In this document: positions 45,604 through 63,373 of the stretch, piece after piece
Layout: each line of letters opens with the position of its first letter
Numbering within the stretch: position 1 is the stretch's first letter
Assembly: GCF_001570585.1 (NCBI RefSeq)
Contig: NZ_BBXF01000001.1
Coordinates: 1,047,691 to 1,111,690, forward strand
Origin: Herbidospora daliensis
GTDB lineage: Bacteria; Actinomycetota; Actinomycetes; Streptosporangiales; Streptosporangiaceae
DNA length: 64,000 bases
Direction: 5' to 3'
Position numbers and translations under genes: made by a program
Notes under the pieces: generated by a model
The model's database searches: none
What the model was told of the DNA's origin: nothing
Seen by the model: only the letters and a program-made list of their open reading frames with translations

Positions 45604-45610
45604 GGACTCC

Positions 45611-48091: not shown

Positions 48092-49191
48092 ACCTCGACG
48101 AGATGGTCGGCGACCTGGAGGAACTGGTCGGCTGCGAGTCGTTCTCGGCCGACCACGCGGCGGTGGCGAAGAGCGCCGAGGTGGTCGCCGAGGTCGGGGC
48201 CCGCCGGTTGGGCGCGGCCCCCGAGCGGGTGACCGTCCGGGGGGTGTCGCATCTGAAGTGGACGTTCGGTCAGCCCCGCGTGCTGCTGCTCGGCCACCAC
48301 GACACGGTCTGGCCGGTCGGCACCCTGCGCGACATGCCGTGGAGCTGCCGCGACGGCATCGCGCGGGGGCCGGGCGTCTTCGACATGAAGGCCGGGCTGG
48401 TGCAGCTCTTCCACGCCCTGTCGGGCCTGCCGTCCCTCGACGGGGTGTCGGTGCTGGTCGTGGGCGACGAGGAGCTCGGCTCCCCCACCTCGCAACCGCT
48501 GATCGAGGAGGCCGCGCGGGGCCTGCGCGCCGCGTTCGTCCTGGAGGCCAGCGCCGACGGCGGGGCGCTGAAACTGGCGCGCAAGGGCATCTCCCGGTAC
48601 GAACTCCTGGTGCACGGCCGGGCCGCCCACGCCGGCCTCGAACCGGAGAAGGGCGCCAACGCCGGAATCGAGCTGGCGCACCAGATCATCGCCATCACGC
48701 GGATCGCCGGGAACGTGGCGTCGTCGTCCCAACCGGGGTCGTTGTCGGTGACGCCGACGCTGATGTCGGCCGGCACGTCCACGAACACCATCCCCGCCCT
48801 CGGGCGGGTGGCGATCGACGTGCGGGTGCCCGACGTCGCCTCCCAGCAGCGGGTCGACGAGCTGATGCGGGCGCTCACCCCGGTCGTCGAGGGCACCCGG
48901 CTCGAACTGCTGGGCGGCCCGAACCGGCCGCCCTTCGACGGCGAGGCGTCGGCCGCCCTGTTCGAACGGGCCGTGGCGATCGCCGCCGGGCTGGGCATGC
49001 CCCCGCTGACCGGGGTGTCGGTCGGCGGCGCCTCCGACGGCAACTTCACCGCCGGGGTCGGCACCCCCACCCTCGACGGCCTGGGCGCCCTCGGCGGCGG
49101 CGCGCACGCGCCCGAGGAGCACGTCCTGGTGGAGCACATGCCCATCAGGGCCCGGCTGCTGACGGAACTGGTGCGGTCGGTGCTGGCGTGA
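48088..49191 (+). CDS. M20 family metallopeptidase (carboxypeptidase G2-like)
   Basis: A 367-residue zinc hydrolase of the M20 family. Metal ligands appear in order: LLGHHDTVWPVG (His, Asp), GVFDMKAGL (bridging Asp), GDEELGS (catalytic Glu-Glu), a Glu in VLEASADGG, and the dimerisation-domain His in GRAAHAGLEPEKG. Most similar to CPG2/ArgE-type enzymes removing C-terminal Glu or N-acyl groups. It starts at a GTG overlapping the dipeptidase stop and is itself coupled to the GNAT gene, making a three-gene peptide-processing unit. Confidence 0.94.
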   Translation: MNLDEMVGDLEELVGCESFSADHAAVAKSAEVVAEVGARRLGAAPERVTVRGVSHLKWTFGQPRVLLLGHHDTVWPVGTLRDMPWSCRDGIARGPGVFDMKAGLVQLFHALSGLPSLDGVSVLVVGDEELGSPTSQPLIEEAARGLRAAFVLEASADGGALKLARKGISRYELLVHGRAAHAGLEPEKGANAGIELAHQIIAITRIAGNVASSSQPGSLSVTPTLMSAGTSTNTIPALGRVAIDVRVPDVASQQRVDELMRALTPVVEGTRLELLGGPNRPPFDGEASAALFERAVAIAAGLGMPPLTGVSVGGASDGNFTAGVGTPTLDGLGALGGGAHAPEEHVLVEHMPIRARLLTELVRSVLA

Positions 49192-49862
49192 TCGTGCGGG
49201 AGCTGACCACCCTGGCCGAGTTCGAGGCGCTCCACGGGGTGTTCGACGAGATCTGGCGGCCCGACCCGGCCAACCCTCCGGTGACCGTGGAGCTGATGCG
49301 GGCCTTCTCCCACGCGGGCAACTACGTGGCGGGGGCCTTCGTCGACGGACGGCTGGCCGGCGGGTCGGTCGGCTTCTGCTCCCCACCCCGCGAGGCGACC
49401 CTGCACTCCCACGTGACCGGGGTGGTCGCTCCGGGTGCCGGGCTGGCGCTGAAGCGCCACCAGCGGTCGTGGGCGCTGGCCCGCGGCATCGCCACGATCA
49501 CGTGGACGTTCGACCCGCTGGTCCGCCGCAACGCCTACTTCAACCTGGTGAAACTGGGCGCCCGGCCGGAGCGCTACTACGAGAACTTCTACGGCGAGAT
49601 GGCCGACGGGGTGAACGCGGGCGACGAGTCCGACCGGGTGCTGGCGGTGTGGCGGCTCACCGACCCCCGGCCGGCCGACGACGGCGTGGTCGTGGTCGCG
49701 CTGCCGGAGGACATCGAACGGCTGCGGCGCGACGACCCGGCCGAGGCGCGGCGGTGGCGGCTGACCGTCCGGGAGGAACTGGGCGGGCGGCTGCGCGACG
49801 GGTGGCGGGTGACCGGGTTCCGCGACGGCGGCTACGTGCTGGCGTCGCCCCCGGCCAGGTAG
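49188..49862 (+). CDS. GNAT-like protein (COG3375 type)
   Basis: A 224-residue predicted acetyltransferase starting at a GTG overlapping the M20 stop. It contains AGAFVDGRLAGGSVGF, LHSHVTGVVAPGAGLALKRHQRSWALARGI and TWTFDPLVRRNAYFNLVKLGA, the signature of the COG3375 family. This family often neighbours peptidases and o-succinylbenzoate-synthase-like N-acylamino acid racemases. The acetyl-CoA loop is weak, so activity is uncertain. Its last 31 bp overlap the convergent acyl-CoA synthetase gene. It is the third gene of the dipeptidase-M20-GNAT unit. Confidence 0.85.
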   Translation: MIVRELTTLAEFEALHGVFDEIWRPDPANPPVTVELMRAFSHAGNYVAGAFVDGRLAGGSVGFCSPPREATLHSHVTGVVAPGAGLALKRHQRSWALARGIATITWTFDPLVRRNAYFNLVKLGARPERYYENFYGEMADGVNAGDESDRVLAVWRLTDPRPADDGVVVVALPEDIERLRRDDPAEARRWRLTVREELGGRLRDGWRVTGFRDGGYVLASPPAR

Positions 49863-51280
49863 CCCTCCCTGACCCTCGTCCGCGACAACTTGCCCGTCGG
49901 CGTGCGGGGCAGTTCGTCGCGGAACTCGATCACCCGGGGATGCTTGAACCGGGCCAGCCGAGGCCCCAGATGCTCCCTGAGCTCGTCCTCCGTCACCTTC
50001 TCCGCCGCCTGGACGAGCGCCACCACCGAGTGCCCCCACTCCTCGTCGGGCACCCCGATCACCGCCGCGTCCACCACGCCGGGATGCGCGAGCAGGGCGG
50101 CCTCGATCTCGGCCGGGTAGATGTTCACGCCGCCGCTCACGATCAGGTCGGTGCGGCGGTCGAGCAGGAACAGGTAGCCGTCGGCGTCGAGGTAGCCGAT
50201 GTCGCCGGGGGTGTACCAGTCGCCGCGTTTGGAGGCGGCGGTCTTCGCCGGGTCCTTGCGGTACTCGAAGGTGCCCAGCGACGACTTCACGTAGATCATT
50301 CCGGGGGTGCCGGGCGGGACGTCGTCGCCGTTCTCGTCGAGGACGCGGGCCTCCGTGCCGGGGACCGGGCGGCCGACCGTGCCCGGGTGGGCGAGCCACT
50401 CGTGGGGCTTCACGGCGAAGGCGATGGTCGACTCGGTCGAGCCGTAGTACTCGTAGAGGACCGGGCCGAACCAGTCCATCATCGCCTGTTTCACCGCGAC
50501 CGGGCAGGCGGCGGCCGTGTGGGTGACCTGGCGCAGCGAGGAGACGTCGAAGCGCTCCCTGGTCTCGGCCGGGAGGCGGAGCATGCGGTGGAACATGGTC
50601 GGGACCATCATCGTGTCGGTCACCCGGTGGCGTTCGATCAGTTCCAGCACGGGTTCCGGGTCGAACTTGGGCGCGATCACGACCGTGTGGCCCAGGTGGA
50701 GGGCGAACTGCGCGTGGGCGCAGGGGGCCGAGTGGTACATCGGCGAGGTCACCAGGTGCACGCCGTCGCCCTGGCGCAGGTCGAGCACCTCCTCGATGAA
50801 CCACAGGTAGAGCGGCATGATCTCTTCGGGGGTCTTGGACGTCCGGGGCCGCTGGACCCCCTTCGGGAAGCCCGTGGTGCCGCTCGTGTACCACATGACC
50901 TGGCCGTACGTCCGGTCGGGCGGGTCGGTGACCGGGTTGCCGAGGGCCAGGGCGGCGACGTCCTCCGGGGTCCGGACGACCAGTTTCGCGTCGCTGTCGG
51001 TGACGATGTAGCCGATCTCGGCCTCGGTCAGGTGCCAGTTGACCGGCACGTAGTAGAGGCCGGTCTGGCCGGTGGCCAGGAGCATGACGAGGGCGTCCAG
51101 GCCGTTGCGGAGCGTGCCGGCGACCACGTCGCCGGCCTGCAGGCCCTGGGCGCGCAGGCCGTGGGAGACCTGGTTGGCGAGGGCGAGCAGCTCCCCGGCG
51201 CGGACCTCGGCGCCGTCGACGTCGATCGCGGCGAGGCGGCCGGGGTCGGTCCGGGCGATCAGGTAGAAGCTCGGGTCCAT
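49832..51280 (-). CDS. Acyl-CoA synthetase (AMP-binding enzyme)
   Basis: A 482-residue ANL-superfamily ligase. P-loop YTSGTTGFPKGV, the A5 block YEYYGSTES, the A7 GDWYTPGDIGYLD, the hinge DRRTDLIVSGGVNIYP and the catalytic Lys in LPRTPTGKLSRTRVR. It activates a carboxylic acid as acyl-AMP and transfers it to CoA; it resembles medium/long-chain or steroid-type FadD enzymes. It starts at ATG (MDPSFYLIARTD). The upstream in-frame stretch is not homologous. It faces the orphan histidine kinase divergently with a 72-bp gap containing TTGAGTAGC, the half-site seen in the 61.5-kb operator. Confidence 0.93.
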   Translation of the reverse strand: MDPSFYLIARTDPGRLAAIDVDGAEVRAGELLALANQVSHGLRAQGLQAGDVVAGTLRNGLDALVMLLATGQTGLYYVPVNWHLTEAEIGYIVTDSDAKLVVRTPEDVAALALGNPVTDPPDRTYGQVMWYTSGTTGFPKGVQRPRTSKTPEEIMPLYLWFIEEVLDLRQGDGVHLVTSPMYHSAPCAHAQFALHLGHTVVIAPKFDPEPVLELIERHRVTDTMMVPTMFHRMLRLPAETRERFDVSSLRQVTHTAAACPVAVKQAMMDWFGPVLYEYYGSTESTIAFAVKPHEWLAHPGTVGRPVPGTEARVLDENGDDVPPGTPGMIYVKSSLGTFEYRKDPAKTAASKRGDWYTPGDIGYLDADGYLFLLDRRTDLIVSGGVNIYPAEIEAALLAHPGVVDAAVIGVPDEEWGHSVVALVQAAEKVTEDELREHLGPRLARFKHPRVIEFRDELPRTPTGKLSRTRVREGYLAGGDAST

Positions 51281-51352: not shown

Positions 51353-52726
51353 GTGATCATCTGGGACATCAGGGGGAACAGGTTGTTCGGATGGCGCCGA
51401 TGGTCGATGCGGGGCCGGTTGACTGTGGTCGCCGGTCTGGTCATGACGCTCCTGTGCCTGGCCGTGCTCGCGACCGCCCTCATCGGCCTGCGGGGGCTGG
51501 CGAGCCAGTACAACGTCGACCGGATCGTCCGGGTCACCCTCAAGACCATCCACATGCTGAAGAACGACCAGATCCCCGACGTGCTGCCGGCCCAGGGCAT
51601 CGCCGGGCTGCAGGTGATCCGGCCCGACGGGACGGTGGAGTCGTCCAGCGTGCTGCTCCAGGGCAAGCCCCGCATGGCCTTCTTCCAGCCGCCCGACACG
51701 ACCGTGCGGCAGGACATGGTGCACTGCGACTCCACCTTGTGGCCCGACCAGTGCATGGTGATCGTCGCGATACGGGTCTACAGCCCCGAGGGCGACTACC
51801 TGATCTACGCCGCCGACCCGGTGGTGCCCTGGTACGTCGACCCGCGCGTCGACCTGCTGCTGTTCCTCGGGGCGGGGCTCATCGTCACGGTGACGACCTT
51901 CGGCACGTACGTGCTGGTGGGCAAGGCGCTGCGGCCCGTCGACGCGATCAGCGAGGAGCTGGCCACCATCACCGGCAGCGAACTCGACCACCGGGTGCCG
52001 GTGCCCCGGAACCACGACGAGATCCGCCGCCTCGCCGAGACGGCCAACGCCACCCTCGACCGCCTGGAGGAGGCGGTCGAGCAGCAGCGCCGGTTCGCCT
52101 CCGACGCCTCCCACGACCTGCGCAGCCCGCTGACCGCCATGCGCGCCGAGGTCGAGTCGGCCCTCCTCGACGTCGAGTCGGCCGACTGGGAGCACACCGG
52201 CGAGGCCATCCTCGCCAGCATCGACCGCCTTCAAGCCCTCGTGGACGACCTGCTCCAGATCGCCCGCCTCGACTCGGGCGCCCCGGGGCGGATGGACCCC
52301 GTCGACCTCGGCCAGCTCGCCGCGACCGAGCTCGACCGCCGCAGGCGCCGGGTCAGGATCATCAGGGAGCTCCAGTCAGGCGTGATCATCATGGGCGACC
52401 GGCTGCGGCTCGCCCGCGTGCTGACCAACCTGCTCGACAACGCCGAACGCCACGCCAACTCGGTCGTGATCGTCAAGGTCTACGAGGAGGCGCTCTGCGG
52501 CGTGCTGGAGGTCGTGGACGACGGCGCGGGGGTGCCGCGCGACAAGTGGGAGCACGTCTTCCAGCGCTTCACCCGCCTCGACGCGGCCCGGTCCCGCGAC
52601 GCGGGCGGCACCGGCCTGGGGCTCGCCATCGCCCGGCAGATCTGTGAGGGCCACGGCGGCACGCTCGCCATCGAGGACAGTGTGAAGGGCGCCCGATTCG
52701 TGCTGCGAATCCCCGTGTCACGCTAG
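51353..52726 (+). CDS. Orphan sensor histidine kinase
   Basis: A 457-residue two-TM kinase with TM1 near 25-48, an extracytoplasmic PAS-like sensor (about 50-170; GLQVIRPDGTVESSS and MVHCDSTLWPDQCMV), TM2, HAMP, H-box ASDASHDLRSPLTAM, N-box NLLDNAERHA and G-box GGTGLGLAIARQI. No response regulator adjoins it; the next gene is a TetR regulator. The start is uncertain: GTG at 51353, or TTG at 51383, which has AGGGGG 6 nt upstream, or ATG at 51407. The two Cys in the sensor loop may form a disulfide. Confidence 0.88.
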   Translation: MIIWDIRGNRLFGWRRWSMRGRLTVVAGLVMTLLCLAVLATALIGLRGLASQYNVDRIVRVTLKTIHMLKNDQIPDVLPAQGIAGLQVIRPDGTVESSSVLLQGKPRMAFFQPPDTTVRQDMVHCDSTLWPDQCMVIVAIRVYSPEGDYLIYAADPVVPWYVDPRVDLLLFLGAGLIVTVTTFGTYVLVGKALRPVDAISEELATITGSELDHRVPVPRNHDEIRRLAETANATLDRLEEAVEQQRRFASDASHDLRSPLTAMRAEVESALLDVESADWEHTGEAILASIDRLQALVDDLLQIARLDSGAPGRMDPVDLGQLAATELDRRRRRVRIIRELQSGVIIMGDRLRLARVLTNLLDNAERHANSVVIVKVYEEALCGVLEVVDDGAGVPRDKWEHVFQRFTRLDAARSRDAGGTGLGLAIARQICEGHGGTLAIEDSVKGARFVLRIPVSR

Positions 52727-52735: not shown

Positions 52736-53338
52736 GTGGCACGGGGAATCAGCCGGATGCGCAGGGAGGATCTGCTCAAGGTCGCCTGCGAGGTCATCGC
52801 GGCCCAGGGATTCGGGCACACCCGGACCATCGACATCGCCCAGGCGGCCGGGGTCAGCCAGGCGCTGCTCTTCTACCATTTCGAGACCAAGGAGAAACTG
52901 TTCGCCGCGGCTTTCGGATACGCGGCCGAACGCGATCTCGACAATCTCGAGGCGCTGCTCGAATCGGCCGGGGGGCCGATGGAGAAACTGCGGGCGATGC
53001 TCAAGTTGTATTCGCCGAGCGGCAAATCGAAATCGTGGGCGTTGTGGATCGACGCCTGGTCGGAGTCGATGCGCAACCCGTCGCTCGAAGACGTCTCCCG
53101 GGCCCTCGACCTGCGGTGGAAGGACGCCCTGCGGGGGATTCTGGCGGCCGGCGCCGAAGCCGGCGTCTTCGAATGCCCCGATCCCGAAGGGGCCGCCTGG
53201 CGGTTGATGTCGCTGATCGACGGGCTGACCGTTCAGGTGACCGTACACAAGAGGATGTTGACCCGGGCGCGGTTGTTCGAACTGGTGCGGACCGCCGCCG
53301 CCGTCGAACTCGGGCTCGCGCCCGATCAGCTGGCGTAG
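52736..53338 (+). CDS. TetR/AcrR-family transcriptional regulator
   Basis: A 200-residue regulator starting at GTG. The N-terminal HTH (about 10-57) has MRREDLLKVACEVIAAQGFGHTRTIDIAQAAGVSQALLFYHFETKEKLF, the TetR signature including YHFxxKExL. The C-terminal ligand domain resembles BetI/TetR_C_6 types (WIDAWSESMRNPSLEDVSRAL). Its 3' end overlaps that of the catabolic operon by 13 bp. A regulator this close to a six-gene operon with an inverted-repeat operator is its natural candidate controller; the ligand may be an acyl-CoA or an amino-acid derivative. Confidence 0.92.
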   Translation: MARGISRMRREDLLKVACEVIAAQGFGHTRTIDIAQAAGVSQALLFYHFETKEKLFAAAFGYAAERDLDNLEALLESAGGPMEKLRAMLKLYSPSGKSKSWALWIDAWSESMRNPSLEDVSRALDLRWKDALRGILAAGAEAGVFECPDPEGAAWRLMSLIDGLTVQVTVHKRMLTRARLFELVRTAAAVELGLAPDQLA

Positions 53339-55275
53339 GCGTCGAGCGCGACTCCGTCTTTCAGCGGGTTGATTTCGATTTCGGTGATTTCCGGGTGGGC
53401 GTCGAGAATTCGTCCCAGTACGACCATCGCGTGCGCGACGGCGCCGATGTCGGCGGGCGGCGCGCCGCGCCAGCCGTGCAGCAGACGGGAGACGCGGGTC
53501 GTCGCGATCACCTCTGCGGCCTCCTCGTGGGTGAGCGGGGCGAGGGCCGTGACGGTGTCGGCGATGAGTTCGGCGAGCACTCCCCCGGCGCCGAACGTGA
53601 CGACCGGCCCCACGTGGGGGTCGCGGTGCGCGCCGACGATCAGCTCCACGCCCGGCGTCGTGACCTGCTCCTCGACCCAGAGCGGCAGGCCGCCGAGCGC
53701 GGCCCGCATCCGCGCCGCCTCCCGGTGGAGTTCGGCCGGGAGGCGGATGCCGAGCACGACCCCGCCGACGTCGGTCTTGTGGGCCGGGCCCAGCGCCTTG
53801 AGCACCAGCGGGTAGGCCAGACCGGGGTCACCGCCGTCGTAGAGCAGCCCGGCGGGGAAGGCGACGCCGGCGGCCATGAGGGTGCGGCGCAGGGCGACGA
53901 ATCCGGAGATGTCGCCCGGGAAGGGCGTCGTCTCCCTCGGCCCCGGCGTGGGCACGTGCGTGAGTGATCGCAGCGCGCTCAGGCCGGTCATGACGGCGTC
54001 GATCGTGCCGTGGACGGGCACTCCGGCCGCCCGCAGGAAGTCGACGGTCGGGCCCTCGGGGCGCATCGTGTGGATCAGGCACGGCCGGGTGGTGAGCGTC
54101 TCGGCCAGGCGGGCGGCGGCGGCCAGCTCCGCGCCCTCCAGGGCCGGGCTGTCGGCGGCGTAGCTGCCGAAGTAACCGGTCAGGACGACGGCGTCCACCT
54201 CGGGCGCGACGATCTCCGCGATCCTCGGGTACGTCGCCAGGTCGGCCTCCCCCGCCCCCGCGAGGTCGACCGGGTTCGACAGGCCCGCGTCGGGCGGCAG
54301 GAGGGCCCGCAGCGCGCCGACCGTGGCCGGGGTGAACGCCGGGACCTCCAGGCCGAGGCGTTCGGCCAGTTCGGCGGCGAGCGCGCCCTGGCCGCCGCTG
54401 TCGGCCACCACCGCGACCCGCCGCACGGCGGCCGGGACGGCCAGGCACGCCTGCGCGATGTGGATCGCCTCCTGCGGGGTGCGGGCGCGCAGCACGCCCG
54501 CCGCCCGGCACAACGCGTCGACGACGGCGTCGGGGGTGGCGAGCGCGCCCGTGTGGGAGGTGACCGCGCGGCGGCCCGCCGCCGAGCCGCCGACGGTCAG
54601 CAGGATCACCGGCTTGCCGCCCGCCAGGGCGATCAGGTCGCGGCCGATCGACAGGTCTTCGAGGTAGAGGATCACGACGCGGGTGTGCGGGGCCGCGGCG
54701 ACCGCTCCGGCCAGCTCCCGCACGCCCAGGTCGGCCGCCGCGCCGACGGAGACGAACCGCGACAGGCCCAGGCCCTCCTTGGCGGCCAGGTAGCCGAGTT
54801 CGAGCCCGACCGAGCCGCTCTGGGAGACGACGCCGATCGGGCCGGGGGTGAGCGTGCCCCAGGTGAGGGCCAGGGCGGAGGCGGAGTCGTACACCCCCAT
54901 GCTGGTCGGGCCCACGAGACGGGCGCCCGCCGAGCGCACCCGCTCGGCCAGCGCGGGCAGGCCGCCGGGGTAGACGACCCCGGCGGTGATCGCGACGAGG
55001 TGGCGGGCCCCGGCGTCGAGGGCGTCGCCGACGACCTGCTCGTAGGTGTGCGGCGGGGTCGCGACGGCGACCAGGTCGGGCGTCTCGGGGAGGTCGCGCA
55101 GCGAACGGTACGTGGCGTGGCCGAGGACGTCGGCGCCCCGGGCGTTGACCAGGTGGACCGGCCGGCGCGACGCGCCGCTGAGCGCGCCCTTCGCCAGCCA
55201 GTAGCCCCATTTGGCCGGGTCGCCGGAGGCGCCGACGACGGCGACCGAGCGGGGGTCGAACAGCGCCTCGGTCAT
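53326..55275 (-). CDS. Acetate--CoA ligase (ADP-forming)-type acyl-CoA synthetase
   Basis: A 649-residue single-chain enzyme of the ACD/NDP-forming family, with CoA-binding domain (1 to about 135, SVAVVGASGDPAKWGYW), two succinyl-CoA-ligase-like domains (SQSGSVGLELGYLA, SHTGAL with its phospho-His candidate, and NPVDLAG) and a C-terminal ATP-grasp domain (about 450-649; ALGPAHKTDVGGVVLGI, IEINPLKDG). It reversibly interconverts acyl-CoA plus ADP with acid plus ATP; substrates in the family include acetate, branched-chain and aromatic acids. It overlaps the upstream dehydrogenase gene (ATGA). Last gene of the six-gene operon. Confidence 0.93.
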   Translation of the reverse strand: MTEALFDPRSVAVVGASGDPAKWGYWLAKGALSGASRRPVHLVNARGADVLGHATYRSLRDLPETPDLVAVATPPHTYEQVVGDALDAGARHLVAITAGVVYPGGLPALAERVRSAGARLVGPTSMGVYDSASALALTWGTLTPGPIGVVSQSGSVGLELGYLAAKEGLGLSRFVSVGAAADLGVRELAGAVAAAPHTRVVILYLEDLSIGRDLIALAGGKPVILLTVGGSAAGRRAVTSHTGALATPDAVVDALCRAAGVLRARTPQEAIHIAQACLAVPAAVRRVAVVADSGGQGALAAELAERLGLEVPAFTPATVGALRALLPPDAGLSNPVDLAGAGEADLATYPRIAEIVAPEVDAVVLTGYFGSYAADSPALEGAELAAAARLAETLTTRPCLIHTMRPEGPTVDFLRAAGVPVHGTIDAVMTGLSALRSLTHVPTPGPRETTPFPGDISGFVALRRTLMAAGVAFPAGLLYDGGDPGLAYPLVLKALGPAHKTDVGGVVLGIRLPAELHREAARMRAALGGLPLWVEEQVTTPGVELIVGAHRDPHVGPVVTFGAGGVLAELIADTVTALAPLTHEEAAEVIATTRVSRLLHGWRGAPPADIGAVAHAMVVLGRILDAHPEITEIEINPLKDGVALDAYAS

Positions 55276-56390
55276 CGCCCGGCCGCCATGTTCCGGGCGC
55301 TCAGGTCGTGGGCGACCTCGCGCGGCGTGCGGGCCGGGTCGGACATGATCTCGGTCGTCACCCGGCGCATCCAGGAGCGGATCTTCGCGAAGGCGGCGTC
55401 GGCGTCGGCCGGGATGTCGCCGAACAACGTCCACCACCACCAGGAGTTGGTCGCCGAGTTGGCGACCACGTCCGGGACGACCACCACGCCCCGGGCGGCG
55501 AGCAGCCGCTCGGCCTCCGGGGTGACCGGCACGTTGGCCGCCTCCACCACCAGCCGGGCCCGCACCCTCGGGGCCTGCTCGGCGCCGACGCAGTAGGAGA
55601 CCGCGGCCGGGATCAGCAGGTCGCAGTCGACGTCGAGCCACTCGTCCCGGGGCCGTTTCACGCCGGGAACCCGCCCGAAGGGGTCGCGGGCACGCAGCAG
55701 CGCCTCCACGTCGAGGCCGCCGGGGTCGGCGAGCAGCCCGTCGGCGTCGGCGACGCCGACGATCCGCACCCCCGCCCGCGCCAGGAACCGCGCGGTCGCG
55801 CCGCCCATGGAGCCGAAGCCCTGGACGACCGCCGTCGGATTCCGGATGCCGAGCCGGTCGAGCGCCGTCAGCGCCGACTCGGCCACGCCGCAACCCCCCG
55901 CGAGGTCGCCCAGGCCGATGCCGTCGACCGTGACGGCGAAGGCGGCGTCCAGGCGCTTCAGGGCCGTGTCAGGATCGTCGAGCAGCGGCAGCACGGCGTC
56001 GATCGAGGTCCGCAGCCCGGCGGCGTGGCACGCCTCCTCGATCGACTCCTGGCGCAGTCCGAGATCCTCGCCGGTCGCCCAGTAGGTGCTCAGCAGGGGC
56101 TTCATCGCGGCGATGTAGCGGTGCAGCATCCCGGTGGCCTCCGGGTCGAGCGGATCGCAGTCGATGCCGCCCTTCGCGCCGCCGAGCGGCTGGTAGGCCA
56201 GCCCCGGCTCGTAGGCGATGGCCTCCTTGCGCGACATGCCCCGGGCCAGGTCGGCGACCTCGTCGAGGGTGACGCCGGCGCGCATCCGCAACCCGCCGCT
56301 GCTGACACCCCGTCCCAGCCGGTCGATGACGAGGTAGCCGGGCCGGCCGGTGACGTCGTCGGTCCAGACGACCTGGAGGAACGGGGTCAT
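55272..56390 (-). CDS. Glu/Leu/Phe/Val dehydrogenase family protein
   Basis: A 372-residue amino-acid dehydrogenase. The catalytic Lys region reads YQPLGGAKGGIDCDP, the family PROSITE motif; a Rossmann domain follows with VVQGFGSMGGATARFLARAG and a typical EAANVPVTPEAERLL. The length fits the leucine/phenylalanine/valine dehydrogenases rather than hexameric GDHs. It oxidatively deaminates an L-amino acid to the 2-oxo acid, probably with NAD+. Start and stop both overlap neighbours by 4 bp (ATGA), placing it in the middle of the coupled operon. Confidence 0.93.
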   Translation of the reverse strand: MTPFLQVVWTDDVTGRPGYLVIDRLGRGVSSGGLRMRAGVTLDEVADLARGMSRKEAIAYEPGLAYQPLGGAKGGIDCDPLDPEATGMLHRYIAAMKPLLSTYWATGEDLGLRQESIEEACHAAGLRTSIDAVLPLLDDPDTALKRLDAAFAVTVDGIGLGDLAGGCGVAESALTALDRLGIRNPTAVVQGFGSMGGATARFLARAGVRIVGVADADGLLADPGGLDVEALLRARDPFGRVPGVKRPRDEWLDVDCDLLIPAAVSYCVGAEQAPRVRARLVVEAANVPVTPEAERLLAARGVVVVPDVVANSATNSWWWWTLFGDIPADADAAFAKIRSWMRRVTTEIMSDPARTPREVAHDLSARNMAAGR

Positions 56391-58120
56391 GACTGCTCCT
56401 GGATGACGATCACCGTGGGGCACACGGCGGCGAACGCCGCGCCGATCTCACCCGCCAGATCTGCGGGCCGGGCCACGGCGCGGGCGCCGAACGCCCGCGC
56501 GAGCTGAACGAAGTCGGGGGCGTGCAGGTCGACGGCGACCGGGGTCATGGGCCGGGCTTGCATCTCGGCGCGGATCTCGCCGTAACCGCCGTTGACCGCG
56601 ACGACGATCGGCAGGTTGAGCCCCAGCTCCACGGCGGTCGCCAGTTCTTGGACGCTGAACTGAAGCGCCCCGTCCCCTGCCAGGACGGCGACGGGGAGGT
56701 CGGGGTTCGCGACCTTGGCGCCGATGGCGGCGGGGAGCGCGTAACCGAGGGTGCCGAAGCCGGTGGGGAACAGGAACCGGTGCGGGAGGACGGCGAGGGC
56801 GCCGTAGTAACAGAACATCGAGTTGTCGGCGGCGACGACGGCGTGGCTGGGGAGGGCCTTGGCGATGGCGTCGAGCTCGGCCCGCCAGGGGGCGGAGAGG
56901 GCGGCACGCTCTTCACCGATCCGAAGCGCGACCTGAGCGAGAGAAACGTGCTGATCATCGATCTCCCGGGTGATCACGGGCAGGTCGGAACCGGGCGCAT
57001 CCACAGCGGCCGTGCTCCGCTCGTCACCGACCTGCCTGATCGCGGCGAGGCCGGGGCTCGTGGGACCTGCGTGTCCGGCCGTTGTGCTGTGCTCCGCAGA
57101 CAGATCGGGGTCGGCGTGCAGTGTGTGTCCAGCGGTCATGCCCTGCTCGTCACTGGCTTCTTGAAGGATCGCGGGCCAGTCGGGGGCGGTGCGCGCAACG
57201 AGTGTGGCCAACGTTGGGAGGGCGGTTTCCGCTCGCGCGGTGATGGGGATCGTCGCGTTCGTCGTCTGGGCCGGGTCGACGTCGATTCGGATGAGGGTGC
57301 CCTCGTAGGCGAAGTCCGTCCACAGATCTGAGGGGGCCAGTTCCGTTCCCACGGCCAGCAGCACGTCGCAGGACTTCAGCCACGCCTGGGTCGCCTTGAG
57401 GAAGAGCGCGGGGCCGAGGTTGCGGGGATGCGCCGGGAGGATGCCCGTCCCGTTGATGGTGGTGACGATCAGAGCGTCTACCGCGTCGGCGAGTTGGAGG
57501 GCCGCTTCGCCCGCGTGCCGGGCGCCGCCGCCCAGGACGATGCCCACCCGTCCGGCCCCGGCCAGGGCCGCGACGGCTTCGGGGAGGCCACCCCGCCCCG
57601 GGAGGGTGACGTCGCCCTCGGCGTCGAGGAGGTCGGCGGGGATCTCGATGTGGACGGGCCGGGGGCGCCCCGATGCGAAGAAGGTGAACGCCGCCGCGAG
57701 CGCCGACGGGATCTCGGCCACGGTCGTCACGCGGTGGCTCCAGGCGCAGACCGCGTCCATGGCCGCCGACTGGTTCTTCGTCTCGTGCAGGTAGCCGGTG
57801 CTCCGGCGCGGGTGGGTCGTCGGGACTCCCGGCGAGATCAGGAGCAGGGGGATCGAGTCGGAGTAGGCCTGCCCGGCCGCCGTGGCCGCGTTCAGGATGC
57901 CGGGGCCGGTCGTGGTCAGCACGACCCCCGGACGGCCCGTGATCCGGGCGTAGCCGTCGGCGGCGTAACCGGCTCCCTGTTCGTGCCGGGGGGTGACCAG
58001 CCGGGTGCCCTGGCGGGCGAGGGCGTCGTACAGGGCGAGGTTGTGGGTGCCCGGGATGCCGAACACCGTGTCGACCCCGTGGGCGGCCAGGGTGGCCGCG
58101 ACCGCCGTCGCGCCGGTCAT
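56387..58120 (-). CDS. Thiamine diphosphate-dependent decarboxylase/acetolactate synthase-like enzyme
   Basis: A 577-residue ThDP enzyme, most like 5-guanidino-2-oxopentanoate decarboxylase or benzoylformate-decarboxylase types. N-terminal Pyr domain with the cofactor-activating Glu (TPRHEQGAGYAADGYAR) and TTTGPGILNA; middle domain; C-terminal PP domain with GDGALQFSVQELATAVE and NGGYGEIR. An unusual ~80-residue hydrophilic linker (about residues 320-405) lies between the middle and PP domains. The next enzyme in the operon is an amino-acid dehydrogenase, so decarboxylation of its 2-oxo acid product is plausible. ATGA overlaps on both sides. Confidence 0.88.
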   Translation of the reverse strand: MTGATAVAATLAAHGVDTVFGIPGTHNLALYDALARQGTRLVTPRHEQGAGYAADGYARITGRPGVVLTTTGPGILNAATAAGQAYSDSIPLLLISPGVPTTHPRRSTGYLHETKNQSAAMDAVCAWSHRVTTVAEIPSALAAAFTFFASGRPRPVHIEIPADLLDAEGDVTLPGRGGLPEAVAALAGAGRVGIVLGGGARHAGEAALQLADAVDALIVTTINGTGILPAHPRNLGPALFLKATQAWLKSCDVLLAVGTELAPSDLWTDFAYEGTLIRIDVDPAQTTNATIPITARAETALPTLATLVARTAPDWPAILQEASDEQGMTAGHTLHADPDLSAEHSTTAGHAGPTSPGLAAIRQVGDERSTAAVDAPGSDLPVITREIDDQHVSLAQVALRIGEERAALSAPWRAELDAIAKALPSHAVVAADNSMFCYYGALAVLPHRFLFPTGFGTLGYALPAAIGAKVANPDLPVAVLAGDGALQFSVQELATAVELGLNLPIVVAVNGGYGEIRAEMQARPMTPVAVDLHAPDFVQLARAFGARAVARPADLAGEIGAAFAAVCPTVIVIQEQS

Positions 58121-59283
58121 GAGCGGGCCAGGGACCGGGAGATGATCAGCCGCTGGATGTCGGAGGTGCCCTCTTCGAGCTCCTCCAGTTTGGCGTCGCG
58201 CAGCCACTTCTCCACGAGGAACTCGCGCGAGTAGCCCCATCCGCCGAACGTCTGCATCGCCGCCCACGCGCACCACACCGCGTTCTCCGACGCCGTCAGC
58301 TTGGCGATGGCGGCCTCCTCGGTGATGGAATGGCCGAGGTCGTGGAGGTCGGCGGCCCGGCGGGTGAGCAGCGCCGACACGTCGGTCCTGGCGGCCATGT
58401 CGGCGAGCCGGAACGCCACCGCCTGGTGGCCGATGATGGGCGTGCCGAACTGCTCTCTCTCCTTCGCGTACGCCAGCGACGCGTCCAGAGCGGCGCGCGA
58501 CAACCCCGTGCAGGCGGCGGCGATGAGGACCCGGGAGGCGTCGAAGGTCCGCATGAGCCCCCGGAACCCCTGCCCTTCGTCGCCGAGCCGGTCGGACACC
58601 GGCACGCGCACCCCGTCGAGGAAGAGCTCCGCGCATGCGATGCCGCGCTGGCCCATCTTCGGCATCGGCGACCCGACCGTGAAGCCGGGTGCGTCGCGGT
58701 GGACGACGAAGGCCGTCACCCCTTTGGCGCGGGTGCCGGGCGCGACCGTCGCGAAGACGACGAACCATTCGGCGAACGGCGCGTTGGAGATCCACGTCTT
58801 CTGGCCGGTCAGCACGTAGTGGTCGCCGTCGCGTTCGGCCCGGGTGGTGATGGCGGCCGCGTCGGAGCCGACGCCGGGCTCGGTCGTGGCCAGCGCGGTC
58901 AGCGGCGGGTCGTCACCGGTCAGCGGCGCGAGCAGCCGTTCCTGCTGCTCCCGGGTGCCGAGTTCGAGCACCGGCGAGGCGAAGAAGCCCCCGGACGTGA
59001 TCAGGTTCCCGATGGAGATGTCTCCGTGGCACAGCTCCTCCTGCACGAGGCACTGGGTGACCAGGTCGGTGACCCCGCCCCCGCCGAACTCCTCGGGGAT
59101 CATGAACGACGTCAGCCCGGCCCGCGCCGCCTTCGCCCAGATCTCCCGGGGGAACACGTGATCGCCCTCGTCGACCTCGCGGGCCCGGGGCCGGATCTCC
59201 TCGGCGGCGAACCGTCGGGCCAGCGCGACGACGTCGGCCTGCTCCGGGCTCAGCTCACGGCCGAGACGCGGGACTCTGGACAT
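58117..59283 (-). CDS. Acyl-CoA dehydrogenase
   Basis: A 388-residue FAD enzyme of the acyl-CoA dehydrogenase family. N-terminal helices, then the flavin/substrate region ALATTEPGVGSDAAAI, KTWISNAPFAEWFVVFA, and the C-terminal helical domain with QTFGGWGYSREFLVEKWLRDAKL; the catalytic Glu is in ELEEGTSDIQR. It introduces an alpha,beta double bond into an acyl-CoA, passing electrons to ETF. Substrate length is unknown; the operon suggests a short branched or aromatic acyl-CoA. The start overlaps the EamA gene's 3' end by 34 bp. Confidence 0.94.
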   Translation of the reverse strand: MSRVPRLGRELSPEQADVVALARRFAAEEIRPRAREVDEGDHVFPREIWAKAARAGLTSFMIPEEFGGGGVTDLVTQCLVQEELCHGDISIGNLITSGGFFASPVLELGTREQQERLLAPLTGDDPPLTALATTEPGVGSDAAAITTRAERDGDHYVLTGQKTWISNAPFAEWFVVFATVAPGTRAKGVTAFVVHRDAPGFTVGSPMPKMGQRGIACAELFLDGVRVPVSDRLGDEGQGFRGLMRTFDASRVLIAAACTGLSRAALDASLAYAKEREQFGTPIIGHQAVAFRLADMAARTDVSALLTRRAADLHDLGHSITEEAAIAKLTASENAVWCAWAAMQTFGGWGYSREFLVEKWLRDAKLEELEEGTSDIQRLIISRSLARS

Positions 59284-60293
59284 GGTCTCTCCTCGGGTAC
59301 GGGCCGGGCCACGATCCCCATGGCGGCCAGCATGCAGCCGCCCCCGACGAGGACGGTCCAGGTGAGCGGCTCGCCGTACAGGACGGCGGCGAACGCGGTC
59401 GCCCACACGGGCTCGACCGCGATGACGACGGCGGCGGCGGTCGGCGGCACGTGCGCCTGCGCCCACGTCTGGGCGAGAAACGTGCCGGCCCCGGCGACGG
59501 TGGCGAGGTAGACCACCCCGGTCCAGTCGACCGCGCTGTCGGGCAGCGCGATCCCGTCGGGCGCGGCGGCGACGGTCATCACGACGGCCAGCGTGAGGAT
59601 CTGCACCACGGAGAGCGCATAGGCGTCTTGCGGCCGTGACCACTTCCCGAGGGCGACCAGATGGACGGCGTACAACGCCGCTGACACGGCGGTCAGCGCG
59701 ACCGCGCCGGCGGGTGCGCTGGCGGGCCCGCTGAGCAGACTGAACGAGGCGGTGCCGACAGTGGCGAGCCCGACGGCCGCCCAGGTCGACCGGCCGACCC
59801 GCGTCTTCAGCCAGACCAGCGCGATCAGCGGCGTCATGACGAGATAGGAGCCGGTGACGAACCCGGAGACCGACGAGGGGAGCTCGGCCAGCCCGATGGT
59901 CTGCAACGTCAGCGCGACCCCGTAGACGAGCCCGAGGAGCGCCCCGACCGCCCACAGACGGGCGGGCAGGTTGCGCAGCGCCTTCGGCCGGATGGCGACG
60001 AGGACCACGACGGCGATCCCGAACCGCGCGGCGTAGAGGTCGGCGATAGGCAGGCGGGCGACGAGATCCTTGGTCAGCGGGAACGTCGATCCCCAGATGG
60101 CGGTGACCGAAACGAGCGCCAGCACCCCCAGGTGATAGTGACGCCTGCCGGATGACCCGGGCGGACTTGGGAGGCCCCCACCGGTCGCGGACGTATTGGT
60201 CGCTTCAGGGTGGGCGCGCGCGGTTGCGGGCACCGTCGCAACAACCTCAGTCGGCACCGAAAGCGGCACCGAGTGCTGGTCGCCGGTTGTCAT
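59250..60293 (-). CDS. EamA (DMT) family transporter
   Basis: A 347-residue permease with ten hydrophobic segments (about residues 55-330) in two EamA repeats: SVTAIWGSTFPLTKDLV and AALYAVHLVALGKWSRPQDAY mark the start and middle, and AVVIAVEPVWATAFAAVLYGEPL is the diagnostic end of the second repeat. The ~50-residue N-terminal tail is hydrophilic and unlike typical members. Members export or import amino acids, metabolites or nucleotide sugars. Its position in the catabolic operon suggests substrate uptake or export of a toxic intermediate. Its ATG overlaps the amidohydrolase stop. Confidence 0.92.
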   Translation of the reverse strand: MTTGDQHSVPLSVPTEVVATVPATARAHPEATNTSATGGGLPSPPGSSGRRHYHLGVLALVSVTAIWGSTFPLTKDLVARLPIADLYAARFGIAVVVLVAIRPKALRNLPARLWAVGALLGLVYGVALTLQTIGLAELPSSVSGFVTGSYLVMTPLIALVWLKTRVGRSTWAAVGLATVGTASFSLLSGPASAPAGAVALTAVSAALYAVHLVALGKWSRPQDAYALSVVQILTLAVVMTVAAAPDGIALPDSAVDWTGVVYLATVAGAGTFLAQTWAQAHVPPTAAAVVIAVEPVWATAFAAVLYGEPLTWTVLVGGGCMLAAMGIVARPVPEERPCPESRVSAVS

Positions 60294-61513
60294 GAGGCGG
60301 CCCGCAGGGTGTTCTCGACCACCTCGCCGCCCTTCATCACGAAGGCCACGTCGGCGAACTTCGTGATGTCGAGCTCTCCCGGCACCGCGACCAGGTCGGC
60401 GTACAGGCCAGGAGCGATGGAGCCGACCCGGTCAGCCCATCCCATGCACTCGGCGCTGGTCAGCGTCGCGGCTTTCAGTGCCTGGATCGGGGTGAGGCCG
60501 TGCTCGACCATGGTGGCCAGTTGCCGCCCCTGCAAACCGTGGGGGAAGCCGCCCGCGTCGGTGCCGAAGCCGATCTTCACCCCGGCCCGCACCGCCTTGC
60601 GGAAGCCCTCGCGCTGGGCCTCGGCGGTCTCGTCGTTCTTGCGGAGTTGTTCGGCGTCGTAGCCCTGCGACGGGCCCGTCTCTCGGATCCAGTCGGCCCA
60701 CCAGATGTCGGCCGACAGGTAGGTCCCGTGGGCGGCCATCAGGTCGGCGGCCTCGTCGTCGAGGAAGCAGGCGTGCTCGATCGACCGCACGCCGGCGCGC
60801 ACCGCCCGTTTGATGCCCTCGGTGCCGTGGGCGTGGGCGGCGACGTAGCGGCCGTACCAGGACGCCTCCTCGACGGCGGCGCGCATCTGGGCCTCGGTCA
60901 GCTCGGGCGCGCCGGGCACGGTGCCGTTGGCCAGCACCGCGCCGGTGGCGATCAGCTTGATCAGGTCGGCCCCGTGGAAGACGATCTCGCGGACCCGCTC
61001 CCTGATGTCGTCCACGGAACGCGTCTCGCCGAACCGGAACTCCTTGGGCACCTCGACGTCGGGGGCGAATCCGGTCAGCATCCCGCCACCGCCGCGAACC
61101 GTCACATAGGCCCCGGCGACGGCCATGCGCGGGCCGAGGACGTGCCCGGCGTCGATGGCGTCGCGCAGCGCCACGTCGACGAACGCCCGGAACGTGCCGA
61201 CGTCGCGCACGGTGGTGAAGCCGGCGAGCAGCGTGTCGCGGGCGTTGGGGATGGACGCGAACGCCTGCCGGGCGGCGCTGTGCTTGAGCTCCTGGGCGTA
61301 GTCGCCGCACGCCGCCACCCCGACGAGATGGGTGTGCAGGTCGATCAGCCCGGGGGCCACGGTGACGTCGCCGAGGTCAACAACCTCTCCGTCGAACCCG
61401 GCGGCCGGACCGGTCGAGACGATCCGGTCGCCCTCGATGACGATGAGCTGATCGGTCAGCACCCGCTCGCCCACGACGTCGACGAGCCGGGCGCACCGCA
61501 CCGCTCTGGTCAC
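60290..61513 (-). CDS. Amidohydrolase family protein (Xaa-Pro dipeptidase/imidazolonepropionase-like)
   Basis: A 407-residue metal-dependent hydrolase. Metal-site residues appear in the usual order: DLHTHL (two His), a Lys candidate in IKLIATGA, HAHG, IEHACF and the late GFGTDAGGF Asp. This is the subtype including Xaa-Pro dipeptidases and organophosphate prolidases (Sgx9260-type). It starts at a GTG preceded by GGAGGGGAGG. As first gene of the operon, just downstream of the TGAGT-N4-ACTCA operator, it is probably the entry enzyme that frees an amino acid from a cyclic or N-blocked substrate. Confidence 0.92.
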   Translation of the reverse strand: MTRAVRCARLVDVVGERVLTDQLIVIEGDRIVSTGPAAGFDGEVVDLGDVTVAPGLIDLHTHLVGVAACGDYAQELKHSAARQAFASIPNARDTLLAGFTTVRDVGTFRAFVDVALRDAIDAGHVLGPRMAVAGAYVTVRGGGGMLTGFAPDVEVPKEFRFGETRSVDDIRERVREIVFHGADLIKLIATGAVLANGTVPGAPELTEAQMRAAVEEASWYGRYVAAHAHGTEGIKRAVRAGVRSIEHACFLDDEAADLMAAHGTYLSADIWWADWIRETGPSQGYDAEQLRKNDETAEAQREGFRKAVRAGVKIGFGTDAGGFPHGLQGRQLATMVEHGLTPIQALKAATLTSAECMGWADRVGSIAPGLYADLVAVPGELDITKFADVAFVMKGGEVVENTLRAAS

Positions 61514-61535
61514 CGGTCCTCCCCTCCTGTTTTAC

Positions 61536-61549
61536 TGAGTCGCTACTCA
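61536..61549. promoter_or_regulatory. TetR-type operator between the catabolic operon and the S9 peptidase gene
   Basis: TGAGT (61536-61540), CGCT, ACTCA (61545-61549): a perfect 5-4-5 inverted repeat in the 75-bp divergent gap. The pattern resembles operators of acyl-CoA-responsive TetR regulators such as FadR/PsrA types. On the minus strand it sits about 25 nt upstream of the operon's GTG. Confidence 0.6.
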
Positions 61550-61588
61550 AACACAGCAGGGTTTACCTTGGCAATAACGGGAGCGGCG

Positions 61589-63373
61589 ATGCAACCGAAG
61601 GACCTGGCGACCGACCGTCTGCTCACCGAACTGGCCGTCTCGCCCGACGGCCGCCACGTCGCCGTCGTCGAACGCCGCGTCGTCGCCGGCCGCGAACGCC
61701 ACCGCCTCCTGCTGGTCCCGACGACCGGCGGCCGGCCCAGAGTCCTCACCGCCGAGGCGTCCGCGCCGTCGTTCTCTCCTTCGGGCACGTCCATCGCCTA
61801 CCTGCACAAGAACCAGGTCCGTGTACGCCCCCTCGCCGGCGGCCCCGCCCGCACGGTGACGGCGTTCAAACGGGGCGTCGTGGAGTTCGCCTGGCTCGAC
61901 GACACCCGCTTCGCCGTGCTGGCCCCCGACGACGAGTCGCCCGTGATGCGCGGCGACGTCGCCCGCGTCGTCCGCCGCCTCGACTGGCGCGAGGAGGGCC
62001 ACGGCCTGCGCCTCCATCCGACCCACGTCCACGTGGTGGGCGACGAGGTGACGCGACTGACGCGGGGCGACTGGTGGGCGTCGTGCCTGCGCGTCCGCGG
62101 AGAGAAGATCGGTTTCATCGCCGACCGGGGCGACGACCGCGACCCGAACCCGCAGGTCCACGAGGTGACCCTGGCGGGCGAGCTGACCCAGCGCACCAGC
62201 CTGAAAGGCCCGGTCGTGCGCTTCACCTACACCGAGGACGGCGACGTCGTCGCGGTCGCGCCCCCGGTCCGCCGCCCCACCGACTGGGACCCGGAGACCG
62301 TCTGGCACGAGGACGCTCCGCTCACCGCCCACCTCGACAGGTTCGCCGGCCAGGCCCCCACCACCGACGAACGCCTGACGGTCGTCTGCGACGACGGCCG
62401 CGAATACGCCCGCGACCTGCGAACCGGCCGCGACCTGACTCCAAGGGAACTCGACCCGGTGGTGCACGCCCTGGCAGAAGGCGGCGGCGTCGTGTGCGCC
62501 ATCGCGTCGTTCGGCGGCGCGGCCCGCCCCGACCTCTACCGCCTCGACCCGCTCGAACGCCTCATGTCATCGGGCTCGGCCTGGCTGGCCGACCACCCAG
62601 CCCCCGTCGAACGCGAAATGGAGATCGAGGGCATCCAGGTCTTCCTCACGGCCCCGCCCGGCACCGACCTCGACACCGCCCGCGGCCTCCCCACGGTGCT
62701 GGCCCTGCACGGCGGCCCGGCCTGGGCCTGGCCGGTCGCCCCCGACTCCGACGCGCTGCTGCTGGCGTCGGCGGGCTACCTGGTCGTCCGCCCCAACATC
62801 CGCGGCTCCTTCCACCGGGGCCGCGCGTGGGGCGACGCGCTCGGCGCGGACTGGGGCGGCCCGGACGCCGACGACTGCCACACCGTCGTCGACCACCTGA
62901 CGGAGTCGGGCCTGGCCGGGAAACTGGCCTGCTACGGCAACTCCTACGGCGGCTTCCTGGTCAACTGGCTCATCGGCGTCAGCGACCGCTTCGCCGCGGC
63001 CATCAGCCAGAACGGGGTGACGAACCAGGTGTCGGGTTTCGCCGCCTGCGACCTCGGAGCCGTCTACGACGTGGACTCGGGCCTGGGCGACACCTGGACG
63101 GAAGAGGGGGTGGCCCACCTCTGGAAGATCAGCCCCCTGCGCAACGTCGCGAGGATCACCACGCCGCTGCTGCTCCTGCAGGGAGAACAGGACTTTCGCT
63201 GCCCGCCGTCGGACGCCGAGCAGATGTTCGTCGCGTTGCGACGGTTGAGGAGGGATGTGGAGTACGTCCTCTATCCGGACTCGGGCCACTCGATGACCCA
63301 CGACGCCCGCCTGGATCGACGCGTCGACCGCTCAGAGAGGATGCTCCACTGGCTCAACCGCCACCTGCGCTGA
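61589..63373 (+). CDS. S9 family peptidase (prolyl oligopeptidase-like)
   Basis: A 594-residue serine peptidase. N-terminal propeller (1 to about 340; SPDGRHVAVVERR, SPSGTSIAYLHK), then an alpha/beta-hydrolase domain with LHGGPAWAW, the nucleophile in GNSYGGFL (S452), Asp in QGEQDFRCP and His in DSGHSMTH. No signal peptide, so cytosolic. It is divergent from the six-gene operon and shares its TGAGT-N4-ACTCA operator, suggesting it liberates N-terminal peptides or amino acids feeding that pathway. The ATG is preceded by GGGAG. Confidence 0.93.
   Translation: MQPKDLATDRLLTELAVSPDGRHVAVVERRVVAGRERHRLLLVPTTGGRPRVLTAEASAPSFSPSGTSIAYLHKNQVRVRPLAGGPARTVTAFKRGVVEFAWLDDTRFAVLAPDDESPVMRGDVARVVRRLDWREEGHGLRLHPTHVHVVGDEVTRLTRGDWWASCLRVRGEKIGFIADRGDDRDPNPQVHEVTLAGELTQRTSLKGPVVRFTYTEDGDVVAVAPPVRRPTDWDPETVWHEDAPLTAHLDRFAGQAPTTDERLTVVCDDGREYARDLRTGRDLTPRELDPVVHALAEGGGVVCAIASFGGAARPDLYRLDPLERLMSSGSAWLADHPAPVEREMEIEGIQVFLTAPPGTDLDTARGLPTVLALHGGPAWAWPVAPDSDALLLASAGYLVVRPNIRGSFHRGRAWGDALGADWGGPDADDCHTVVDHLTESGLAGKLACYGNSYGGFLVNWLIGVSDRFAAAISQNGVTNQVSGFAACDLGAVYDVDSGLGDTWTEEGVAHLWKISPLRNVARITTPLLLLQGEQDFRCPPSDAEQMFVALRRLRRDVEYVLYPDSGHSMTHDARLDRRVDRSERMLHWLNRHLR

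What the first reader, a model, noticed from the sequence alone, without database searches (positions are those of the whole stretch)
53326..63373. Six-gene fully overlapping catabolic operon with divergent peptidase: possible undescribed peptide/amino-acid degradation pathway
Seen: amidohydrolase, EamA transporter, acyl-CoA dehydrogenase, ThDP decarboxylase, Glu/Leu/Phe/Val dehydrogenase and ADP-forming-type acyl-CoA ligase are joined by overlaps of 4 or 34 bp at every junction, opposite an S9 peptidase. Known: the dehydrogenase family yields 2-oxo acids, ThDP enzymes decarboxylate them, ACD-type ligases interconvert acids and acyl-CoA, and ACADs oxidise acyl-CoA. Inferred: together they take a peptide or N-blocked amino acid to an enoyl-CoA. 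No aldehyde dehydrogenase is present, so the oxidation step after decarboxylation is missing or done elsewhere. I do not recognise the combination as a named pathway.
Basis: partly seen in the sequence, partly recalled or inferred. Interest (0 to 1): 0.72.

Follow-up and report, generated by a model that had tools for sequence, protein, structure and literature searches.

The report
Actinobacterial cationic amino-acid breakdown operon
A tightly packed set of six soil-bacterium genes looks like a reusable kit for taking an amino acid, probably one with a positively charged side chain, out of peptides and oxidising it step by step, but its exact substrate is unproven.

Summary
In detail: six minus-strand genes joined by overlaps of 4, 34, 4, 4 and 4 bp, opposite an S9 peptidase. 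The genome is Herbidospora-like. All 11 further Streptosporangiaceae loci keep the set, with an invariant 34-bp overlap and a conserved divergent promoter block. ACAD, ThDP enzyme and ligase accompany the dehydrogenase in 24 of 96 loci, in two MAGs in window order. The "missing" aldehyde dehydrogenase sits with the core in L084 and L138. Two enzymes hint at a cationic amino acid: the amidohydrolase leans to L-Arg/Lys carboxypeptidases, and the ThDP enzyme is AruI-like; 5 of 11 scanned relatives pass the 2-ketoarginine decarboxylase cut-off, the window's own does not. Some relatives add an N-methyl amino-acid oxidase, a formaldehyde-handling enzyme and a dienoyl-CoA-reductase-like protein. Against a strict arginine route: one mycobacterium has a separate AruI-like gene beside an agmatinase-type gene. 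Against a fixed pathway: 31 of 85 other loci have the dehydrogenase alone. Verdict: a real, recurrent, modular catabolic operon; new variant of a known kind, substrate unproven.

The parts
60290..61513 (-). amidohydrolase, COG1228-type metallo-carboxypeptidase, closest solved relative L-Arg/Lys carboxypeptidase Cc2672
   Evidence: Pfam PF01979 183.4 bits; PDB 3mtw 313.5 bits, 3be7 251.1; subgroup residues
59250..60293 (-). EamA-family permease
   Evidence: PF00892 92.9 bits; 34-bp overlap with ACAD in 11 of 11 loci
58117..59283 (-). acyl-CoA dehydrogenase (short/medium-chain type)
   Evidence: PF00441, PF02770, PF02771 over cut-off; best PDB match 1ukw 329 bits
56387..58120 (-). ThDP-dependent AruI-like 2-oxo acid decarboxylase with a long variable linker
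   Evidence: PF02776, PF00205, PF02775 over cut-off; NF005712 435.4 bits, cut-off 500; relatives up to 537.6
55272..56390 (-). ELFV-family amino-acid dehydrogenase with invariant W317-W320
53326..55275 (-). ADP-forming-type acyl-CoA ligase, fused subunits, 649 aa
   Evidence: PF13380, PF13607, PF13549 over cut-off
61589..63373 (+). S9 prolyl-oligopeptidase-family peptidase, divergent
   Evidence: PF00326 139.9 bits
61514..61588 (.). divergent promoter/operator region with conserved ATTGCCAAGGTAAA and GTGTTTGAGT blocks and a TGAGT-N4-ACTCA dyad
   Evidence: both blocks in 12 of 12 aligned rows, perfect dyad in 8 of 12; 13-mer TTGCCAAGGTAAA once in 8.52 Mb
52736..53338 (+). TetR-family regulator (BetI-type C-terminal domain), candidate regulator
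   Evidence: PF13977 90 bits, PF00440 51.5

Best explanation
The operon is a catabolic unit for an amino acid with a bulky, probably cationic (Arg/Lys-like) side chain. Peptidase S9 and the amidohydrolase free the C-terminal amino acid; the ELFV dehydrogenase deaminates it to the 2-oxo acid; the AruI-like ThDP enzyme decarboxylates this to the aldehyde; an aldehyde dehydrogenase coded elsewhere in this genome makes the acid; the ADP-forming-type ligase makes the acyl-CoA; the acyl-CoA dehydrogenase makes the 2-enoyl-CoA. EamA moves substrate or by-product; a TetR protein probably acts on the conserved divergent promoter. Shown here: gene identities, conserved order, the ALDH in relatives, subgroup residues of the amidohydrolase. 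Inferred: every reaction, the substrate, the direction and the regulation.
For: ThDP gene, ligase and ACAD all accompany the dehydrogenase in 24 of 96 loci, in varied orders across Streptomyces, Streptacidiphilus, Kibdelosporangium, Lentzea, Speluncibacter and MAGs. L100 and L109 have window order ACAD-ThDP-dehydrogenase-ligase; in L109 two junctions overlap by 4 bp by ORF limits. L138: ACAD-ligase-SDR-ThDP-dehydrogenase-ALDH-D2HDH-EamA-TetR beside ABC transport genes (PotA model over its cut-off, PotB model below). Amidohydrolase: nearest solved structures are Arg carboxypeptidases; at 53 positions where two Arg enzymes agree and differ from two ochratoxinase-type ones it sides 23 to 9 with Arg, 21 with neither; D269, D274, K292, Q300, R301 in 16 of 16 cluster amidohydrolases. 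ThDP: 5 of 11 scanned module relatives pass the 2-ketoarginine decarboxylase cut-off. Two Streptomyces plasmids carry the set together, their annotation naming the ThDP enzyme 5-guanidino-2-oxopentanoate decarboxylase.
Against: The window's own ThDP protein is under the AruI cut-off (435.4 of 500); 6 of 11 relatives miss it too, and AruI homologues can prefer other 2-oxo acids (S. meliloti IlvB1, PMC7268258 passages). Mycobacterium aquaticum has a separate AruI-like gene next to an agmatinase-type gene besides a ThDP-dehydrogenase pair. 31 of 85 other loci have the dehydrogenase without any of the three partners; of 24 genomes searched for a strong ThDP match 4 had one, two of them already known from the locus. 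Two Lentzea genomes (L043, L053) have ACAD, ligase and dehydrogenase but no strong ThDP match. The Arg lean of the amidohydrolase is partial: 21 of 53 positions fit neither type, and E302, one of the Arg-type matches, is kept in only 8 of 16 cluster members; 2qs8, a hydrophobic-specific enzyme, also has an acid (E) at 274 and Q at 300. Its best NCBIfam model is Xaa-Pro dipeptidase (460 of 500); that such names are often misannotations is recalled. No acidic residue was shown in the dehydrogenase pocket.
Confidence: 0.48

Rival explanations
1. Same route but for a neutral hydrophobic or sulfur amino acid (Leu/Val/Met type or an N-methylated form), with the AruI and Arg-carboxypeptidase likenesses being only ancestry.
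For: ELFV enzymes mostly act on neutral or acidic amino acids (general knowledge); the best ACAD models are short-chain types; the residue aligned with a substrate-binding lysine of glutamate dehydrogenase is small, S31 (alignment; its role is recalled); Streptomyces members add an N-methyl-L-tryptophan oxidase-type enzyme (L048: one copy over its cut-off, 285.9 of 257, a second below, 232.4).
Against: Amidohydrolase subgroup residues; PotA-type transporter gene in L138.
Confidence: 0.25
2. Strict L-arginine pathway: arginine, 2-ketoarginine, 4-guanidinobutanal, 4-guanidinobutanoate, 4-guanidinobutanoyl-CoA, 4-guanidinobutenoyl-CoA: a dehydrogenase- and CoA-linked version of the arginine transaminase pathway.
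For: AruI-like ThDP, Arg-leaning amidohydrolase, aminobutyraldehyde dehydrogenase as top model of the ALDH in L084 and L138 (394.7 and 400.1 of 615, both under cut-off).
Against: No ureohydrolase among the six genes; a mycobacterium has a separate AruI-like gene beside an agmatinase-type gene; a dienoyl-CoA-reductase-like partner has no obvious use on a C4 chain (inference).
Confidence: 0.15
3. No single pathway: a general amino-acid dehydrogenase and an acid-oxidising set are merely co-transcribed.
For: Dehydrogenase alone or in other gene sets (L139, L140, L086).
Against: The ThDP gene is in 49 of 96 dehydrogenase loci, and all three partners in 24 of 96 in differing orders.
Confidence: 0.12

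Closest known systems
Arginine transaminase pathway (AruH/AruI; S. meliloti AspC/IlvB1, PMC7268258 passages)
   Same: 2-oxo acid made from an amino acid, then an AruI-family ThDP decarboxylase, then aldehyde dehydrogenase
   Different: here an ELFV dehydrogenase stands in place of the transaminase, and the acid seems to go to a CoA thioester and ACAD instead of a ureohydrolase
ScyB-ScyA of scytonemin biosynthesis
   Same: an ELFV-family dehydrogenase paired with an acetolactate-synthase-like ThDP enzyme
   Different: ScyA condenses two 2-oxo acids (PMC2726228 passages); here ligase and ACAD follow, and the ScyB model scores 27.8 of 600
L-Arg/Lys carboxypeptidases Cc2672 and Sgx9359b
   Same: nearest solved amidohydrolases and shared subgroup residues
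   Different: 45% identity (177 of 393 aligned) to Cc2672; a Trp-rich SADIWWADW stretch replaces SMDIYNTDY
ADP-forming acyl-CoA synthetases (acetate--CoA ligase family)
   Same: CoA-binding, ligase and ATP-grasp domains
   Different: 649 aa, far below named equivalog cut-offs (251.3 of 567 for the best)

Membership tests
5-guanidino-2-oxopentanoate decarboxylase (AruI, NF005712) | score at or above the NCBIfam cut-off of 500 bits, window protein | tested here: not met
   435.4 bits, still the best model by 104 bits
5-guanidino-2-oxopentanoate decarboxylase (AruI, NF005712) | cut-off reached by relatives in the module | tested here: inconclusive
   5 of 11: L136, L131, L054, L160, L093 pass; L084 494.8, L064 499.6, L072 480.9, L101 438.3 miss; L109, L046 no match at E <= 1e-130
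5-guanidino-2-oxopentanoate decarboxylase (AruI, NF005712) | decarboxylates 2-ketoarginine | not testable with these tools
   needs enzyme assay
L-Arg/Lys carboxypeptidase (Cc2672 group) | residues shared by Cc2672 and Sgx9359b but not by two ochratoxinase-type enzymes | tested here: inconclusive
   of 53 such positions 23 match Arg type, 9 the other, 21 neither
L-Arg/Lys carboxypeptidase (Cc2672 group) | cleaves Xaa-Arg or Xaa-Lys | not testable with these tools
   needs enzyme assay
ELFV amino-acid dehydrogenase | both Pfam domains over cut-off | tested here: met
glutamate dehydrogenase (named NCBIfam equivalogs) | equivalog cut-off | tested here: not met
   120.1 of 620 and 116.7 of 750 for the best two
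acyl-CoA dehydrogenase | N, middle and C domains over cut-off | tested here: met
ADP-forming acyl-CoA ligase | CoA_binding_2, Succ_CoA_lig, ATP-grasp_5 over cut-off | tested here: met
arginine transaminase pathway | arginine:pyruvate transaminase with the decarboxylase | tested here: not met
   no aminotransferase among the six genes; a dehydrogenase is there instead
scytonemin ScyA/ScyB pair | ScyB equivalog cut-off | tested here: not met
   27.8 of 600

The most novel reading that the evidence does not exclude
The module degrades N-methylated basic amino acids such as trimethyllysine. The chain would be: amidohydrolase with a Trp-rich stretch at its substrate side, dehydrogenase with the invariant WWWW, AruI-like decarboxylase, betaine/aminobutyraldehyde-type ALDH, ligase making delta-valerobetaine-CoA, ACAD making its 2-enoyl-CoA, loss of trimethylamine to 2,4-pentadienoyl-CoA, and reduction by the dienoyl-CoA-reductase-like partner. 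The SolA-type oxidase and mycothiol-dependent formaldehyde dehydrogenase of Streptomyces members would handle the methyl groups. All of this is inference. The one search for delta-valerobetaine with trimethyllysine and gene cluster listed one review, whose passages name no bacterial gene for making it.
Probability: 0.12. Interest if true: 0.8.

Novelty: new variant of a known kind. Interest (0 to 1): 0.5.

Why it matters
If true, it is a recurring route that links an amino-acid dehydrogenase, an AruI-type decarboxylase and acyl-CoA chemistry, and it would give substrates to protein families that databases name only by domain. It also lies on two Streptomyces plasmids (both typed non-mobilizable), so it can sit outside the chromosome as a block. 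It supplies a testable case of a dehydrogenase of the glutamate-dehydrogenase fold with a Trp-rich signature that may bind cationic side chains.

Tried and rejected
Prevalence by the window ThDP gave 4 of 396 genomes, but only three candidates per genome were scored and the variable linker splits the match, so this count is an underestimate and was not used; the plasmid search with it found nothing, and a canonical relative found the same two plasmids as the dehydrogenase. The first S9 scan was off frame and empty and was replaced. The promoter 13-mer as a regulon finder: one copy in the genome, so no co-regulated ALDH found, and none within one mismatch in 24 other clusters scanned; the looser TTNCCNNGGNAA matched in 3 of those 24. 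Paper searches for the combination found none that describes it: 0 papers; one search listed 12 of 169, none relevant by title; (2-ketoarginine names) listed 3 and 8; some searches were for single parts. 4-guanidinobutyryl-CoA with Streptomyces gave four papers, listing only. The ThDP tree (52 rows, L036 and L038 dropped) leaves the base unresolved and has long branches; it shows the ureohydrolase-linked L162 outside the starred module clades, but L131, a module member, also hangs at the base. Treating L064 (Rhodococcus rhodnii) as independent was rejected: its ThDP is nearly that of Kibdelosporangium, so label or strain may be wrong; it is still counted among the 24. Gene calls in relatives came from a simple GC-frame script and contain false ORFs.

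Full report
What is there. The window lies in an 8.52-Mb genome whose nearest named loci are six Herbidospora records, 93-97% identical in the dehydrogenase. Six minus-strand genes run amidohydrolase, EamA, ACAD, ThDP enzyme, ELFV dehydrogenase, ligase with overlaps of 4, 34, 4, 4 and 4 bp; an S9 peptidase runs the other way from a 75-bp gap. Pfam backs all names. By eye, likely metal ligands of the amidohydrolase (DLHTHL, IKLIATG, HAHG, IEHA, GTDAGG), two ligase histidines (SHTGALA, HKTDVGG), the ThDP glutamate (RHEQGA) and the ACAD glutamate (EEGTSDIQ) are present; their roles are recalled from the families, not tested.

Conservation. The full set with S9 is in six Herbidospora, four Acrocarpospora and one further Streptosporangiaceae locus. 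All 11 keep the order; the EamA/ACAD overlap is 34 bp in 11 of 11. Between the amidohydrolase and S9 starts, ATTGCCAAGGTAAA and GTGTTTGAGT are kept in 12 of 12 aligned rows (window plus 11), while the dyad TGAGT-N4-ACTCA is perfect in 8 of 12. The 13-mer TTGCCAAGGTAAA occurs once in the genome and, with up to one mismatch, in none of 24 other clusters scanned.

Wider spread. Two MAGs, L100 and L109, have ACAD-ThDP-dehydrogenase-ligase in window order. The dehydrogenase is in 17 of 396 phylum genomes at E <= 1e-70, own included, and in 37 of 120 family genomes at E <= 1e-30, of which 12 are 55% or more identical, own included and one over 218 residues only. So this is an accessory module.

The missing step. 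L138 has ACAD-ligase-SDR-ThDP-dehydrogenase-ALDH-D-2-hydroxyacid dehydrogenase-EamA-TetR next to ABC transport genes (PotA subfamily model 362.7 of 355.6; PotB model 190.7 of 348). L084 has TetR-dehydrogenase-ThDP-ligase-SDR-ALDH-ACAD. ALDH-like genes at 35% identity or more are in 9 of 96 loci, some of them loci without the rest of the core. The own genome holds 18 ALDH matches at E <= 1e-40, none in the window, best 47% identical.

Other partners. A dienoyl-CoA-reductase-like SDR (L054: best model PRK07677, 291.7 of 318) is in 6 of 96 loci at 60% identity or more. N-methyl-L-tryptophan oxidase-type genes are in 4 of 96, and S-(hydroxymethyl)mycothiol dehydrogenase (scored in L048: 685.7 of 512.9) in 3 of 96. 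Amidohydrolase relatives are in 13 of 96 and EamA in 14 of 96. Two Streptomyces plasmids carry ACAD, ThDP (named 5-guanidino-2-oxopentanoate decarboxylase), SDR, ligase, SolA, dehydrogenase and an amidohydrolase within about 15 kb.

Substrate. Amidohydrolase: the two nearest solved chains are L-Arg carboxypeptidases (3mtw 313.5, 3be7 251.1 bits). PMC11342369 (passages) states that Cc2672 (3MTW) cuts Xaa-Arg/Lys, Sgx9359b (3DUG, listed with 3be7) Xaa-Arg, and 2QS8 is an enzyme for hydrophobic ends. Of 53 positions where the Arg pair agrees and differs from 9kov and 8ihq, the window matches Arg at 23, the others at 9, neither at 21; of 67 positions where 9kov and 8ihq agree against the Arg pair, the split is 24, 9 and 34. 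2qs8 has T at 269, E at 274 and S at 301 but keeps Q at 300. D269, D274, K292, Q300 and R301 are in 16 of 16 cluster amidohydrolases; E302 in 8 of 16. ThDP: see the membership test. A caution is that S. meliloti IlvB1, an AruI homologue, is seven times more active on 5-amino-oxopentanoate (PMC7268258 passages).

Evidence against arginine itself. Mycobacterium aquaticum (G521) has a ThDP-dehydrogenase-TetR-permease set (L161) and, apart, an AruI-family gene (505.7 bits) one base after an agmatinase-model ORF (229.6 of 174.3) (L162). Two paralogues suggest two substrates. A dienoyl-CoA reductase also makes more sense on a C5 or longer chain. I therefore name the class (cationic) and not the compound.

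Verdict. A real and recurrent operon, a new variant on the AruI-type theme with a dehydrogenase in front and acyl-CoA chemistry behind. The substrate class is a moderate inference; the reactions are untested.

Noticed in passing
window 45602-51280: A second catabolic-looking set next door: FAD monooxygenase (best model a Baeyer-Villiger type, far under cut-off), a dipeptidase-like protein (M19 by my reading, no NCBIfam match), M20 hydrolase, GNAT-like protein (by reading) and an AMP-forming acyl-CoA ligase; relatives of all five are in the flank of four Herbidospora loci (L032, L033, L034, L078).
   Followed up: partly
window 51353-52726: Sensor histidine kinase ending 9 bp before the TetR gene; I noticed no response-regulator ORF beside it but did not search for one.
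   Followed up: no
window 56387-58120, residues about 300-445: The ThDP enzyme has a long, fast-changing linker between its middle and C-terminal domains (69 to 151 residues in the window and four relatives; 8 of 13 rows could not be measured); best-stretch identity to six Herbidospora is 73-78%, against 79-97% for the ligase, dehydrogenase and ACAD.
   Followed up: partly
L093, L097, L098, L104: ThDP-dehydrogenase pair in Streptomyces near an AMP-ligase-like gene and, by reading of L093, L097 and L104, a ketosynthase and reductases: a possible biosynthetic use of the same pair.
   Followed up: partly
L162:7995-12116: Agmatinase-model gene, AruI-family ThDP gene and a transporter-like ORF (by reading) in a row in Mycobacterium aquaticum.
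   Followed up: partly
L139 and L140: Same dehydrogenase subfamily in other gene sets: arylmalonate-decarboxylase-family, amidase and BCCT genes in L139, an ectoine-hydrolase-like gene in L140.
   Followed up: partly
L064: Record named Rhodococcus rhodnii has module genes nearly identical to Kibdelosporangium; the label or culture may be wrong.
   Followed up: no
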